A stretch of DNA of 64,000 nt from Cylicocyclus nassatus (Eukaryota > Nematoda > Chromadorea > Rhabditida > Strongylidae), in the NCBI GenBank assembly GCA_958299035.1, contig CATQJL010000112.1, positions 49,992,941 through 50,056,940 on the forward strand, read 5' to 3'. The translations under genes were made by a program, and so were the position numbers. Each line of letters opens with the position of its first letter. The first letter of the stretch is position 1. Below are positions 27,222 to 34,913 of the stretch, piece by piece. The notes below the pieces were generated by a model. That model was not told the DNA's origin. It saw only the letters and a program-made list of their open reading frames with translations, and did not search any database.

Positions 27222-29195
27222 ATGTCAAAGGAAAGAAGATCAAGCATGTCAGAGGAGGAAGAAGAAAGTAAACCAACTACGTCACAAGAAAGAAGCGCAA
27301 CACCTTCTATCTCGGACAAGGAGCTTCAAGAACAGTTATACAAAGCCTGTAAGATACTGGGAAACCGATTGGACAAGTTCTCAGGCTCTGGGGAAAAAAC
27401 TTTTGAGGAATTCCTGAGTGAATACTCGGAAGTGACGCATGAGCTTGCTATCCCGAACCTGATTTCGCAGAAATTACTACCACTCTACCTGACAGGTGGA
27501 GCGAAACTGAAGTACCAACAGATCCCGAATCGAGAGAAGATACCTTGGAAGGATTTGGTAACGGAGCTAGCCAAGCGAATGAAGAATACCTCTCTTCTCA
27601 GCAATATCCGAGGTGAGCTACATAATATGACGCAAGGAAAGGACACAGTGGGAGAATTCGCCAAAAAAATTTACAACAAAACGAAGATCGCTTTCCAGGG
27701 ACAAGGACAACCACTCATTAAGCAGATGGCCATTGATTTCTTTATCAAGGGCCTCAACCCCGAGATTAAGAAAGCGGTTAGAAGACTACCTGACACGGAC
27801 GAATTCGATGAGATAGTATGCAGTGCAGAAAAGGAATCTCGCATCCTGGAACAGGAAAGGAAAGAAGACAGAGACGCCCTTCAAGCCGTCAATGCTCTTC
27901 TTATGGATGAGAAAATCAATCGGCTTGAGCAGCAGTTGAGTCAGATGAAAGCAACACCACGACAGAAACCTACCAGTGACCAGGATAGAAATAAGTTCAG
28001 GCAGATACAGAGGACACTGCGACCTATCCAGAATCCTCCCTTCTTCGGCCCGCGAGGATATAATCCCCGATACCCACCTTTCCGTCAACGTGCACTCCCA
28101 TTCTACAATCGCAGAATGTACAACAATAGATTTCCACCAGTACAAGGAAGAAAACCTTATGACTATGGAGCACCATCATATCCACAATATAGACCCCTTC
28201 CGATAAGTGATGCTCCAGCTCCCGCACCTCCCAGCACCTTCGCGAGAGGAAGGATCAACCCTCCAGGGATTCACTTATTGTGTATCATGACTTTGATACT
28301 GTGCAGTGGATTCACAATTGCGAAATACCAGATATGTGGCACAAACCCATATTCGAACATCTTTTCACTTCCAGAATCATTCGATTGTACAACCCCGACA
28401 AACGCACCTATGTTACGAACTACGATGCAACTGTTTGCAGATACTTCCAATCCATTCTGGAATAATGCAACTAAGTGCTACAGAGATGCCATTGAGGTAT
28501 CTATAAGCAGTTTTCTCCGTATTCGTACTACCACCACCATATTGCGACGTCGCCAGTTGTCGATCCCTCAAGAACTATGCGCAACGGCCAGGACATCAAG
28601 GAAAATACACGATCATGAATTGATTCTGCAGTCGGATGGATTATGGACCACCAATGAAATAGAGGAAGATGACATCGCGATACCACTATGGGGGACCAGG
28701 AACTATCTTCGTAGTGTATACACCGTAGAGGAAGGACAAGTCGCCACTTTCGACGGACAGCACATCATGAGTCCATTGGGTGACACCGAGAACTGCTCGT
28801 ACAGCCAAGGATACTGTCTCACACAGGAATACACGATCATATGGAAACCAACTGAAGTCACACCTTCCTGCAGATTCAAACATGTTGAAACTTTCGAAGC
28901 ATTCGTCACCCTAAACTACATAGTCCTTCCCCACCCCGACCTCGTCTTCCAATTTTCTGAGGATTACCTTCTGCACGAACAACTCACCAGATATTGTCAG
29001 TTGGGCACCAGTTACCTTACGACATCGAACCATATCATCACTTTTCCCCAAGTCCCACAAGACCTTACCATTCAAGATTATGTATTGCGCATGGCCCATC
29101 AAGGAAGAGAACAAAGCGTGCTATACGACATCTTACGGATAAAAACGGTAACACCTTCCCGTTTGAAATTGTGCCGATGGAACCTGTATTTCTGA
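27222..29195 (+). CDS. Gag fused in frame to envelope-like region 1
   Basis: ATG at 27222, 657 codons. Residues 1-345 are Gag: an acidic start, then a capsid-like helical region including KLLPLYLTGGAKLKYQQIP and FFIKGLNPEIKKAVRRL, a coiled coil (INRLEQQLSQMK), and a basic, Arg/Tyr/Pro-rich tail with RGYNPRYPPF-type repeats. There is no CCHC knuckle. Residues 349-368 form a hydrophobic segment (GIHLLCIMTLILCSGFTIA, with an internal ATG at 28287) that looks like a signal peptide or anchor. Residues 369-657 look like a cysteine-bearing, N-glycosylated ectodomain (NNATKC, GDTENCSYSQGYC). The stop is TGA at 29193-29195. The glycoprotein continues in other frames downstream. The Gag-to-envelope join with no stop is unusual. 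Confidence 0.8.
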   Translation: MSKERRSSMSEEEEESKPTTSQERSATPSISDKELQEQLYKACKILGNRLDKFSGSGEKTFEEFLSEYSEVTHELAIPNLISQKLLPLYLTGGAKLKYQQIPNREKIPWKDLVTELAKRMKNTSLLSNIRGELHNMTQGKDTVGEFAKKIYNKTKIAFQGQGQPLIKQMAIDFFIKGLNPEIKKAVRRLPDTDEFDEIVCSAEKESRILEQERKEDRDALQAVNALLMDEKINRLEQQLSQMKATPRQKPTSDQDRNKFRQIQRTLRPIQNPPFFGPRGYNPRYPPFRQRALPFYNRRMYNNRFPPVQGRKPYDYGAPSYPQYRPLPISDAPAPAPPSTFARGRINPPGIHLLCIMTLILCSGFTIAKYQICGTNPYSNIFSLPESFDCTTPTNAPMLRTTMQLFADTSNPFWNNATKCYRDAIEVSISSFLRIRTTTTILRRRQLSIPQELCATARTSRKIHDHELILQSDGLWTTNEIEEDDIAIPLWGTRNYLRSVYTVEEGQVATFDGQHIMSPLGDTENCSYSQGYCLTQEYTIIWKPTEVTPSCRFKHVETFEAFVTLNYIVLPHPDLVFQFSEDYLLHEQLTRYCQLGTSYLTTSNHIITFPQVPQDLTIQDYVLRMAHQGREQSVLYDILRIKTVTPSRLKLCRWNLYF

Positions 29196-29257
29196 CTAAG
29201 CGATTGTTCGGTGTTAGACATCTCAGAAGAATTCCAGTTTTAACGCGCGCCCGATAA
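28994..29257 (+). other. Middle-frame stretch with a furin-like site
   Basis: In the frame between those of the flanking ORFs, codons near 29104-29121 read RKRTKR, a consensus for furin-type cleavage. They are followed by AIRHLTDKNGNTFPFEIVP. The stretch ends at a stop near 29257, just after the next frame opens. It may be the true link between the two glycoprotein regions, reached by frameshift, or a chance frame. Confidence 0.35.
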
Positions 29258-32004: not shown

Positions 32005-34913
32005 CGATCGCATATCCTGCATGCCCATCGGAAGTTTCAGTGCTGCAATTAGAAATTCCATCTATTCAGTTTCCGGGAGATCCGGCTCGTCCTTCTGTTG
32101 CATACGTCAAAGATATACCTCTGGACGACAGCACAAATGACGACTTCAAAATTCCACCAGAAGCAGACTGGGAGAACCGGTTGCCTTTGTTTCCAGTCAT
32201 TCCGGAACCCCAGAATTATGATATCGCCAATGAGATCGATCTATCCCACTCTAACTTAACGAGGAAGCAAAAAGACCAATTGCGAGACATCATTAGATAT
32301 CATAGCAATGCTTTCGTTGGACCAGATGGACATCTTGGACATTATAGAGGAAATATTCGCCATCGAATCGACCTCGTCGAAAATGCAACAATACCAGCCA
32401 GGAAGTTCTATCGAGTGCCCATTGAAAAACGGCAAGAAATAGAGAAGCAGATAACTCAGATGTTGAAAGATGGAATAATCAGGGAATCCACATCTCCGTT
32501 TTGCGCGCCGATCGTATTGGTGAAGAAACGTGAAGCAAACACCTGGCGCTTCACCATCGACTTTCGCGGACTTAATGCCATTACTAAACCACAGCAGTCT
32601 ATCCTACCTAATATCCAGGATATTATTGATTTATGTGCTAATCAATGCCTTTATTCGTCCCTTGACTTTCAACAGGGCTTTCATCAGATACCACTGGAAG
32701 AAGAACATTGCGAAAGGACGGCATTCGCATGCTTTTTGGGAGCATTCGATTACGTTCGCATGCCGATGGGACTGAAAGGAGCCCCTGCCACCTTCCAAAG
32801 AATAATGGATGACTTCAGAAAGTATTTGAAGGCAAGAGTCTTCATTTATATTGATGATCTCATTATTACTTCGGCAAGCCCACAAGAACATCTGGGAGAT
32901 ATCGATGAAGTACTTGGAAAGATTGAAATTATAGGGATGAAGTTAAAGGCATCCAAATGCGAGTTTGCGAAGGAAGAGATCAAATTTTTAGGATTTATCC
33001 TAAGCAAGAAAGGAATAAGACCAAATCCCGAAAAGACCAGAGCAATCGATCAATACCCGCAACCGACGAACCCTACGGAGGTTAAGTCTTTTCTAGGCAT
33101 GTGCTCGTTTTTCCGGAGATTTATCCATAATTTCGCCACGATCGCCGCACCACTCATTGCGCTAACAAAGAAGAATGTCCCCTTCAACTGGACATCGCAA
33201 TGTAAGGAGGCGATGGAACATCTTAAGCAAGCCCTAACAACGGCACCTATTCTTGCAGCACCACGATTGGGTAAACCTTTCATTATCGAGACTGATAGTT
33301 CGGCGAAAGGCGTTGCCGGAGTTCTCAAGCAAGAACAAGGAGGTTTAGAGCGCGTTATCGCTTATGCGAGCCGCACTCTAAATAAACATGAAGCAAGATA
33401 TCCGGCAATAGAACTTGAAGCCTTAGGATTGGTTTACGCGGTGCAGAAGTTCCGACCATACATAAATGGAGCGAAATGCACGATCATCACGGACCATGCA
33501 CCACTCAAAGCACTACTCCATCGAAAAGATCTTACTGGGAGATTGGTTAAATACCAAATCGTGCTGCAGGAATTTGATATCGACATTATCTATCGCCCAG
33601 GAAAGAAGAATGCAGTATGTGATGCGCTATCTCGACATTTACCGCCACCTGTAAACGCTATCACTATCATAGGGAAGGATAACCTTCAGCTAGATGCCAT
33701 AAGGAAGGAACAAGACGAATGTACATGGATTGCAGGAATTAAGATGGCACTGGCAAATAACGAAAACACCGCGAGGTTATCCAATTACCTACTTATAAAT
33801 GATATCCTTTACAGATTGCCAAATTTTCTGTATCAAGACCCTCAAATAGTATTACCGGAATCGTCTCAAATTAAGAACGACATCATCGCTTTGGCACATC
33901 AATCCCAACTAGCGACAGCACATTTGGGAATCAACAAAACCCATGCTGCCGTCGAGAAGATCGCTATTTGGAATCACATGCGCAGGGATATCGCAAGTTT
34001 TATCAATGCATGTGAGCTATGCCAAGCAAGGAAGGATCCGAGCGCTTATATGATAAGAGAACCCTTGTGCCCGTTCGAAATACCGTCCAGGCCATGGCAA
34101 CGAGTACATTCAGATGTGATCGGCCCTCTACCGCTGACATTGGATGGAAACAAGTACATTATTGTTTTCATAGATTCTTTTTCCAAATATATCGTCGCGG
34201 AACCAATACCTGATCAAAAGGCCCACACCACGTCACGCATCTTTATCACCCGCCTTGTAGCCAGGTTCGGACTACCACAAATATTGGTGACAGATCAAGG
34301 ATCGAACTACATGAGTGAGACCTTCCGTACCCTTCTACAGAATTTACACGTCCAACATCGCACAAGTACCCCATACCACCATCAATCAAATGGACAAGTG
34401 GAACGCGTTAACCGTACATTAGAAGAACAAATCGCTATCGCTATCCGTCAACACAGTGATGAATGGGATTACGTTCTTCATCTTGTGGTTCACGCTTGCA
34501 ACAGTGCGGAAAACGCCTCAACCAAATTCACGCCATTTTTCCTTGTCCACGGCTGCGATCCCACAAATATCTTCCACCTAGCGCTTCAGCTACCAACGAA
34601 GAAATATGTGGATACAGAAGATTATGTGGGCAATCTTGTCAAAATTCTGAAGGATACGTATCAAAATGTCTATTCGAACTTGACAAAGGCACAGGATCAA
34701 CAGAAACGTCAATACGATCTGAGAGCAAGGACCCCAAAGACACAATATCAGATAGGGAAGAAAGTTTGGATAAGGAAAGATGCTGGACATAAACTTGCGA
34801 CACGATTCGAAGGACCTTTTCCAATTATTGCTGTTGATCTACCTAACATCACCATTTTGGACGGCAAGCGCAAAAGGATTATTCATGTCGATCGGACAAA
34901 ACTACATAAATAA
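31928..34913 (+). CDS. Pol: reverse transcriptase, RNase H, integrase
   Basis: The frame is open from about 31928 and overlaps the preceding ORF by about 77 nt in the -1 frame. It lacks an ATG near its start. Numbering below counts the GTG codon at 32040 as 1. RT spans about 110-300 with LDFQQGFHQIP, MGLKGAPATFQ and the catalytic YIDD at 270-273. RNase H starts with IIETDSSAKG near 415 and includes TDHAPLKALL. Integrase has an HHCC finger (HLGINKTHAAVE ... CELCQ), then catalytic D692, D752 and E788, i.e. a DD35E spacing, and a C-terminal VWIRKDAGH...FEGPFPI chromatin/GPF-type module. All key residues are present and no stop interrupts, so the enzyme is probably competent. Expression presumably needs a -1 frameshift, although no canonical slippery heptamer was found in the overlap. 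Confidence 0.95.

What the first reader, a model, noticed from the sequence alone, without database searches (positions are those of the whole stretch)
27222..34913. LTR element with the envelope-like gene between Gag and protease
Reading 5' to 3' one finds Gag, a hydrophobic signal-like segment, a glycoprotein-like region, a Thr-rich stalk, a second glycoprotein-like region, a transmembrane helix, retropepsin (DSGA), RT (YIDD), RNase H and DD35E integrase. Retroviruses, errantiviruses and BEL elements with envelopes carry env 3' of pol. Here the glycoprotein is upstream of protease and fused to it. I do not know of a described element with this order, but cannot exclude that some nematode Cer-type elements share it.
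Basis: partly seen in the sequence, partly recalled or inferred. Interest (0 to 1): 0.92.

Follow-up and report, generated by a model that had tools for sequence, protein, structure and literature searches.

The report
Nematode retroelement with mid-genome envelope gene
A virus-like mobile element in a roundworm genome carries its envelope (cell-entry) protein in the middle of its protein chain, between the shell protein and the enzymes, instead of at the end as in nearly all known retroviruses; related worms share this order, and only one comparable case, in flatworms, was found in print.

Summary
The window has an 11.8-kb Ty3/Gypsy LTR element (24770-36607; identical LTRs, CTATA target-site duplications). 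Its order is Gag - signal-like hydrophobic segment - two-part glycoprotein with Thr-rich linker - transmembrane helix - retropepsin - RT - RNase H - integrase, with no envelope-sized ORF 3' of pol. Three searches returned 17 relatives, 15 of them named, from five strongyloid nematodes. None breaks the order; six hold all five test pieces; one Cylicostephanus ORF runs from Gag into RT unbroken. Distances of Gag, glycoprotein, protease and RT agree (six taxa), so the glycoprotein is an old part of the lineage. Twelve ectodomain cysteines are kept, eleven of them in every row covering them. The fold resembles herpesvirus gB and monjiviricete (chuvirus/rhabdo-like) glycoproteins, but the models are low-confidence and Pfam hits lie below cut-off. 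This copy has three frame changes against relatives, so its polyprotein is probably broken. Best reading: a Gag-Env-Pol polyprotein threaded through the ER membrane; splicing was not tested. The order has a precedent in print, planarian Burro elements (2019); none was found for nematodes in ten open-library searches. New variant of a known, rare kind.

The parts
24770..25418 (+). 5' LTR (TG...CA), with TATA-like box near 25040 and AATAAA near 25300
   Evidence: 649 of 649 bases identical to the 3' LTR; sequence read; motif labels recalled
24765..24769 (.). target-site duplication CTATA (upstream copy)
25419..25438 (+). primer-binding-site-like stretch directly after the LTR (starts TGG, as the complement of a tRNA 3' end would)
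   Evidence: sequence; tRNA resemblance recalled, not searched
27222..28268 (+). Gag, counted from the first ATG of its frame: Retrotrans_gag domain at about 27474-27761, then an Arg/Pro/Asn-rich tail without CCHC knuckles
   Evidence: PF03732 E 1.2e-6, no zf-CCHC match at E<=1; translation; the true start is not known
28269..28319 (+). hydrophobic signal-like segment at the Gag/glycoprotein junction
   Evidence: mean hydropathy 2.18; such a segment in 10 of 11 sequences examined, the window included
28326..29084 (+). first glycoprotein part (gpN), 8 cysteines, conserved in all relatives' rows that cover them; matched to gB domains I/II
29102..29119 (+). multibasic, furin-like site (RKRTKR), lying in the second of the three frames used by this copy
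   Evidence: three-frame translation; a multibasic site at this boundary in 5 of 6 relatives examined, not in P0017
29236..29586 (+). helical middle part of the glycoprotein (gpM)
   Evidence: helices in models
29605..30471 (+). Thr/Ser/Pro-rich linker (55% T, S or P, no cysteine), variable in length among relatives
   Evidence: no T/S-rich stretch by the measure in 3 of 6 relatives (P0014, P0017, P0018)
30472..31125 (+). second glycoprotein part (gpC) with 4 cysteines; KRG site at about 30985-30993 (RRG in P0003)
   Evidence: PF24664 E 0.0034, below cut-off
31126..31188 (+). transmembrane helix followed by a basic tail
   Evidence: 12 of 12 sequences with gpC examined, the window included
31402..31677 (+). 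retropepsin (DSGA at 31441)
   Evidence: PF13975 E 2.1e-9
32520..33002 (+). reverse transcriptase (YIDD)
   Evidence: PF00078 E 1.1e-29; translation
33270..33575 (+). RNase H
   Evidence: PF17917 E 1.2e-32
33867..34913 (+). integrase: H2C2 finger 33867-34037, catalytic core 34086-34379, C-terminal part to the stop codon
   Evidence: PF17921 E 4.7e-13, PF00665 E 1.5e-17
35959..36607 (+). 3' LTR
36608..36612 (.). target-site duplication CTATA (downstream copy)

Best explanation
This is a copy of a strongyloid-nematode Ty3/Gypsy retroelement lineage that captured a class III (gB-like) fusion glycoprotein of the kind found in monjiviricete (chuvirus/rhabdo-like) negative-strand RNA viruses and set it in frame between Gag and protease. 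Most likely mechanism: genomic RNA is translated into one Gag-Env-Pol polyprotein. The hydrophobic segment after Gag acts as an internal signal sequence and threads the glycoprotein into the ER lumen. The later helix stops transfer, so Pol emerges in the cytosol beside Gag. Signal peptidase, a furin-like protease and the element's own retropepsin then release the parts, giving enveloped particles that can fuse with other cells. Shown here: gene order, its conservation, co-inheritance, conserved cysteines, signal/TM/basic-tail layout. Predicted with low confidence: the gB-like fold. Inferred: translation as one chain, ER threading, cleavages, fusion function and virus origin.
Against: Both models are poor (mean pLDDT 49 and 52, pTM 0.28 and 0.30). 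Every PF24664 score is below Pfam's cut-off (best 25.6 against 27). A profile of gpC alone found no gB among solved structures by sequence. The window copy has three frame changes. Most relatives are automatic gene models, and some seem to lack pieces the predictor took out (P0006, P0008, P0018). No RNA or protein data were seen, so expression as one chain is not shown. A methionine lies within 30 residues before the signal-like segment in 5 of 10 sequences, so separate initiation or splicing is not excluded. P0017 has no multibasic site at the gpN/gpM boundary.
Confidence: 0.6

Rival explanations
1. Same glycoprotein and same order, but the envelope is expressed from a spliced or trans-spliced subgenomic RNA that supplies its own start. 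The in-frame fusion in the genomic RNA is only compact coding, and Gag-Pol is made by another route.
For: The C. elegans Ty3/Gypsy element Cer1 makes a second protein (CERV) from a spliced RNA (PMC10309623, abstract and passages). Five of 10 sequences have a methionine within 30 residues before the signal-like segment, and the window copy has one inside it.
Against: No methionine is conserved at that place: 5 of 10 sequences have none within 30 residues upstream, and 3 of those 5 have none in the segment either. P0003 keeps one frame from Gag into RT, more than a spliced env would need.
Confidence: 0.27
2. The membrane protein no longer serves infection. It tethers Gag and Pol to internal membranes or vesicles, so particles spread within the germline syncytium or in vesicles.
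For: Position between Gag and Pol would tie both to a membrane. If translation starts at the ATG at 27222, Gag begins MSKE, with no N-terminal glycine for myristoylation.
Against: Ectodomain features are kept across genera, as expected if the ectodomain is used outside the cell: eleven of twelve cysteines in every row covering them and the twelfth in 10 of 12, a K/R-R-G site in 12 of 12, a multibasic site in 5 of 6 relatives.
Confidence: 0.12
3. Artefact: the glycoprotein is a chance insertion, an assembly chimera, or not a glycoprotein.
For: Three frame changes in this copy; weak or no sequence similarity of single sequences to known glycoproteins.
Against: Same order in relatives from five species, congruent distances, conserved cysteines, LTRs and target-site duplication intact.
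Confidence: 0.01

Closest known systems
Burro / GYPSM1 giant Gypsy-like elements of planarians (PMC6431247, section 7 read)
   Same: Gypsy-like pol; env in frame between Gag and protease; that env also gives hits to arthropod and fish mononegavirus glycoproteins.
   Different: Burro exceeds 30 kb with a polyprotein of 4873-5140 aa, CCHC knuckles in Gag, and extra domains (MATH, BIR, ankyrin, BCL2, dUTPase) not found here by Pfam. It lives in flatworms. Whether the two captures share an origin was not tested, because no Burro sequence was at hand.
Atlas virus and other nematode BEL/Pao elements (PMC9094657, passages)
   Same: Nematode host (hookworm); one uninterrupted polyprotein that includes an envelope related to those of a negative-strand RNA virus family.
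   Different: Order Gag-Pol-Env; BEL/Pao polymerase; envelope is class II (phlebovirus-like Gc).
Anakin: chuvirus glycoprotein in mosquito BEL/Pao elements (PMC7642597, passages)
   Same: Chuvirus-type glycoprotein captured by an LTR element.
   Different: BEL/Pao element of mosquitoes. The same paper says that Roo, Tas and Cer-7 carry the envelope-like protein downstream of the polyprotein; the passages did not state Anakin's own gene order.
Cer1 of C. elegans (PMC10309623 abstract and passages, PMC3315495 passages)
   Same: Ty3/Gypsy element of a rhabditid nematode.
   Different: No recognised envelope glycoprotein; the extra ORF lies after pol and encodes part of CERV, a nuclear protein needed for RNA export; Gag has three CCHC fingers.
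Errantiviruses such as Drosophila gypsy (recalled)
   Same: Ty3/Gypsy-type element with an envelope gene.
   Different: env is a separate gene 3' of pol made from a spliced RNA (recalled); [quoted passage not shown]

Membership tests
Ty3/Gypsy (Metaviridae) LTR retroelement | pol order PR-RT-RNase H-integrase | tested here: met
   Pfam
Ty3/Gypsy (Metaviridae) LTR retroelement | polymerase closest to Ty3-type enzymes | tested here: met
   The profile of relatives matched the Ty3 Gag-Pol polyprotein best among solved structures (7q5b, E 1.1e-47); no tree with named clades was made
Ty3/Gypsy (Metaviridae) LTR retroelement | two LTRs with TG...CA ends, target-site duplication, PBS | tested here: met
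   the PBS rests on recalled tRNA features; no clear polypurine tract next to the 3' LTR
Monjiviricetes fusion glycoprotein (PF24664) | score at or above Pfam's gathering cut-off of 27 bits | tested here: not met
   best 25.6 bits (P0012), window 15.8. Hence 'like', not 'a member of'; a newer precomputed version lists PF24664.2 for P0004, P0005, P0012 and P0019
Class III (gB-like) membrane fusion protein | collinear match to gB: domains I/II, central helix, domain IV, then TM | tested here: inconclusive
Class III (gB-like) membrane fusion protein | two hydrophobic fusion loops in domain I | not tested
   most of the stretch that should hold domain I had pLDDT under 50 in both models
Class III (gB-like) membrane fusion protein | trimer that refolds to fuse membranes | not testable with these tools
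   needs experiment
Burro-type elements | env in frame between gag and pol | tested here: met
   in relatives such as P0003, P0012, P0014, P0015, P0017; not as one frame in the window copy
Burro-type elements | giant polyprotein with BCL2/MATH/BIR/dUTPase domains | tested here: not met
   element 11.8 kb; no such Pfam domains
Errantivirus | separate env gene 3' of pol | tested here: not met
   no ORF of 100 aa or more starts between 34914 and 35958

The most novel reading that the evidence does not exclude
A whole lineage of nematode retroviruses makes its infectious particle from a single Gag-Env-Pol chain that is threaded through the ER membrane, as alphaviruses and flaviviruses do. The envelope's signal sequence doubles as Gag's membrane anchor, and the envelope's transmembrane helix as the anchor of Pol. 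Gag, Env and Pol are thereby delivered 1:1:1 to the same membrane, a build plan that I know of in no described retrovirus. The capture of a monjiviricete gB-like glycoprotein would be independent of the flatworm one.
Probability: 0.35. Interest if true: 0.85.

Novelty: new variant of a known kind. Interest (0 to 1): 0.62.

Why it matters
Retroelements are thought to become retroviruses by capturing a fusion protein, which in the usual plan sits behind pol. A lineage that put it in the middle of the polyprotein, and kept it there across strongyloid genera, shows that the order is not fixed. It makes a testable case for a membrane-threaded Gag-Env-Pol precursor. It adds nematodes to planarians as hosts of this order, adds a gB-like envelope to the nematode Ty3/Gypsy group, and gives a compact example (under 8 kb of coding sequence) where the flatworm one exceeds 30 kb.

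Tried and rejected
Cer1-type order (extra ORF as env): rejected, since Cer1's ORF lies after pol and encodes part of CERV. Programmed frameshifting as the reason for three frames: not favoured, because P0012, P0015 and P0017 cover all three places in one protein; not formally tested. Chance insertion: rejected. Whether Burro, Tas or Cer7 envelopes share an origin with this one: not testable, no sequences at hand.

Led nowhere: IMG/VR scans with gpN and with pol (no relatives); a third with alignment A2 did not run for lack of conserved stretches. PHROGs (one match at E 0.12) and NCBIfam (only a weak protease match) gave nothing for the glycoprotein. phmmer of gpN and gpC against PDB gave nothing meaningful. 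The profile of gpC with P0007 was swamped by P0007's RT tail; without P0007 only chance matches. No tRNA and no Rfam family at gathering score in the window. A first distance comparison with three pairs gave r from -1.00 to 0.81 and says nothing. The host assembly could not be searched, so copy number and intact sister copies are unknown. Absence of other families from the structure lists is not evidence against them.

The statement that no nematode precedent was found rests on ten text searches of an open-licence library; most subscription papers and preprints are missing. Papers: PMC6431247 one passage and section 7; PMC10309623 abstract, outline and passages; PMC3315495, PMC7642597, PMC9094657, PMC13195028 passages; PMC5408684 and PMC8556966 one passage each; all others only in search listings.
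Full report
What is there. The window carries an LTR retroelement at 24770-36607. Its two LTRs (TG...CA) are identical in 649 of 649 bases; the surrounding repeat has one mismatch, at 24768, just outside the TG end. CTATA flanks both ends. A PBS-like stretch follows the 5' LTR directly. Such LTR identity points to a recent insertion (inference). It lies in three stop-free stretches of 698, 928 and 993 aa; the longest other stop-to-stop ORF in the window is 374 aa.

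Domains. Pfam finds Retrotrans_gag in the first stretch; in the second, retropepsin families, placed after the glycoprotein and TM; and in the third RT, RNase H, the integrase zinc finger and the integrase core. Between Gag and protease lie a hydrophobic signal-like segment, a first cysteine-bearing part (gpN), a multibasic site, a helical part (gpM), a Thr/Ser/Pro-rich linker, a second cysteine-bearing part (gpC), a KRG site, a transmembrane helix and a basic tail. [quoted passage not shown]

Relatives. Three protein searches returned 17 distinct relatives: 5, 4, and 11, of which 3 were already known. Fifteen carry names, from five species: Cylicostephanus goldi (1), Cylicocyclus nassatus (2), Ancylostoma ceylanicum (4), A. 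duodenale (6) and Oesophagostomum dentatum (2). Two come from an unnamed source. Four of the five species were looked up and belong to Strongyloidea; the fifth shares a genus with one of them. A blastp of window pieces shows the order gag, gpN, gpM, gpC, RNase H/IN in every relative that holds two or more pieces (16 of 17; P0007 holds gpC only). Six of 17 hold all five (P0006, P0012, P0014, P0015, P0017, P0018). In that call the PR and RT pieces were cut in the wrong frame and gave no matches; protease and RT positions come from Pfam. The strongest case is P0003: 1613 aa on a contig of 4842 bases, hence one open frame, from within Gag through the whole glycoprotein and protease into RT. Some relatives are gene models that seem to lack pieces taken out as introns (P0006, P0008, P0018).

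Co-inheritance. For the six sequences with all parts (window, P0012, P0014, P0015, P0017, P0018), pairwise identity matrices of gag, gpN, gpC, PR and RT agree, r 0.81 to 0.95. Only 1 to 9 of 720 relabelings, the true one included, reach as high. A first try with three pairs gave r from -1.00 to 0.81 and says nothing. The glycoprotein is therefore an old part of this lineage, not a separate insertion.

State of this copy. Against relatives the window changes reading frame at about 29085-29110, about 29236 and about 31930-31938. The first two lie in the glycoprotein, the third in the PR-RT linker. They may be real lesions or base-calling errors; sister copies could not be searched because the genome tool did not complete. 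As it stands, this copy would not make the full polyprotein.

How it most likely works. The layout suits a chain that crosses the ER membrane twice. Gag is followed by a hydrophobic segment with net positive charge in the 60 residues before it in all ten sequences measured (in an eleventh, P0018, the landmark was not found); then a cysteine-rich ectodomain; then a helix followed by +6 to +10 net charge (12 of 12); then protease and polymerase. Gag and Pol would face the cytosol and the glycoprotein the lumen. Whether the chain is made whole or the envelope comes from a spliced RNA is not shown; I put the polyprotein ahead because no start codon is conserved before the segment and because one relative keeps one frame from Gag into RT. 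[quoted passage not shown]

Compared with what is known. Planarian Burro elements have env in frame between gag and pol, reported as the first such case (PMC6431247). The order itself is therefore not new. New as far as ten text searches show are the nematode host group, the compact form, the conservation across genera, and the gB-like reading of the envelope. Other nematode elements named in the passages I saw, Cer1, Tas, Cer-7 and Atlas, carry their extra gene behind pol.

Verdict. It is a new variant of a known, rare kind. Confidence is high in the order and its conservation, fair in the glycoprotein type, and moderate in the polyprotein mechanism.

Noticed in passing
window 26181-26810, minus strand: An antisense ORF of 209 aa in the element's 5' leader has three CCHC-like knuckles and an acidic stretch. 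Its knuckle part resembles residues 1386-1450, near the C-terminus, of Cylicocyclus P0004 (36% identity, E 1e-9 in a single comparison; tblastn E 4.6e-7). The sense Gag has no knuckles. It could be an antisense accessory gene or a piece of another element; Pfam (E<=0.05) and NCBIfam find nothing.
   Followed up: partly
P0004 and P0005, C-terminal ends: Both Cylicocyclus gene models end in a similar, non-pol region after RNase H or the protease part; in P0004 it holds knuckles, while P0005 stops at the first. It may be an accessory ORF 3' of pol or a model fusion.
   Followed up: partly
window 34925-34985 and 35930-35958: A purine-rich tract lies just after the integrase stop, about 1 kb before the 3' LTR. 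No polypurine tract is seen directly before the 3' LTR; a C-rich stretch with a small palindrome is there instead.
   Followed up: no
window 37766-37999: A second Gypsy-type RT fragment, 30-34% identical to the relatives' RT.
   Followed up: no
P0014 residues 1-319: About 300 residues before Gag in one Oesophagostomum model have no match in the window.
   Followed up: no
window 44756-44984 and 46586-46814: Two 99% identical 229-base stretches with G-rich arrays (10-base unit CGGAGTGCGG) 1.8 kb apart; between them lie pieces of a longer repeat that recurs inverted at 62022-63024.
   Followed up: no
window 13102-14130, 38742-39744, 56813-57805: Large inverted repeats with arms of about 230-340 bases, 88-94% complementary; the first and third belong to one family. 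They look like short inverted-repeat transposons.
   Followed up: no
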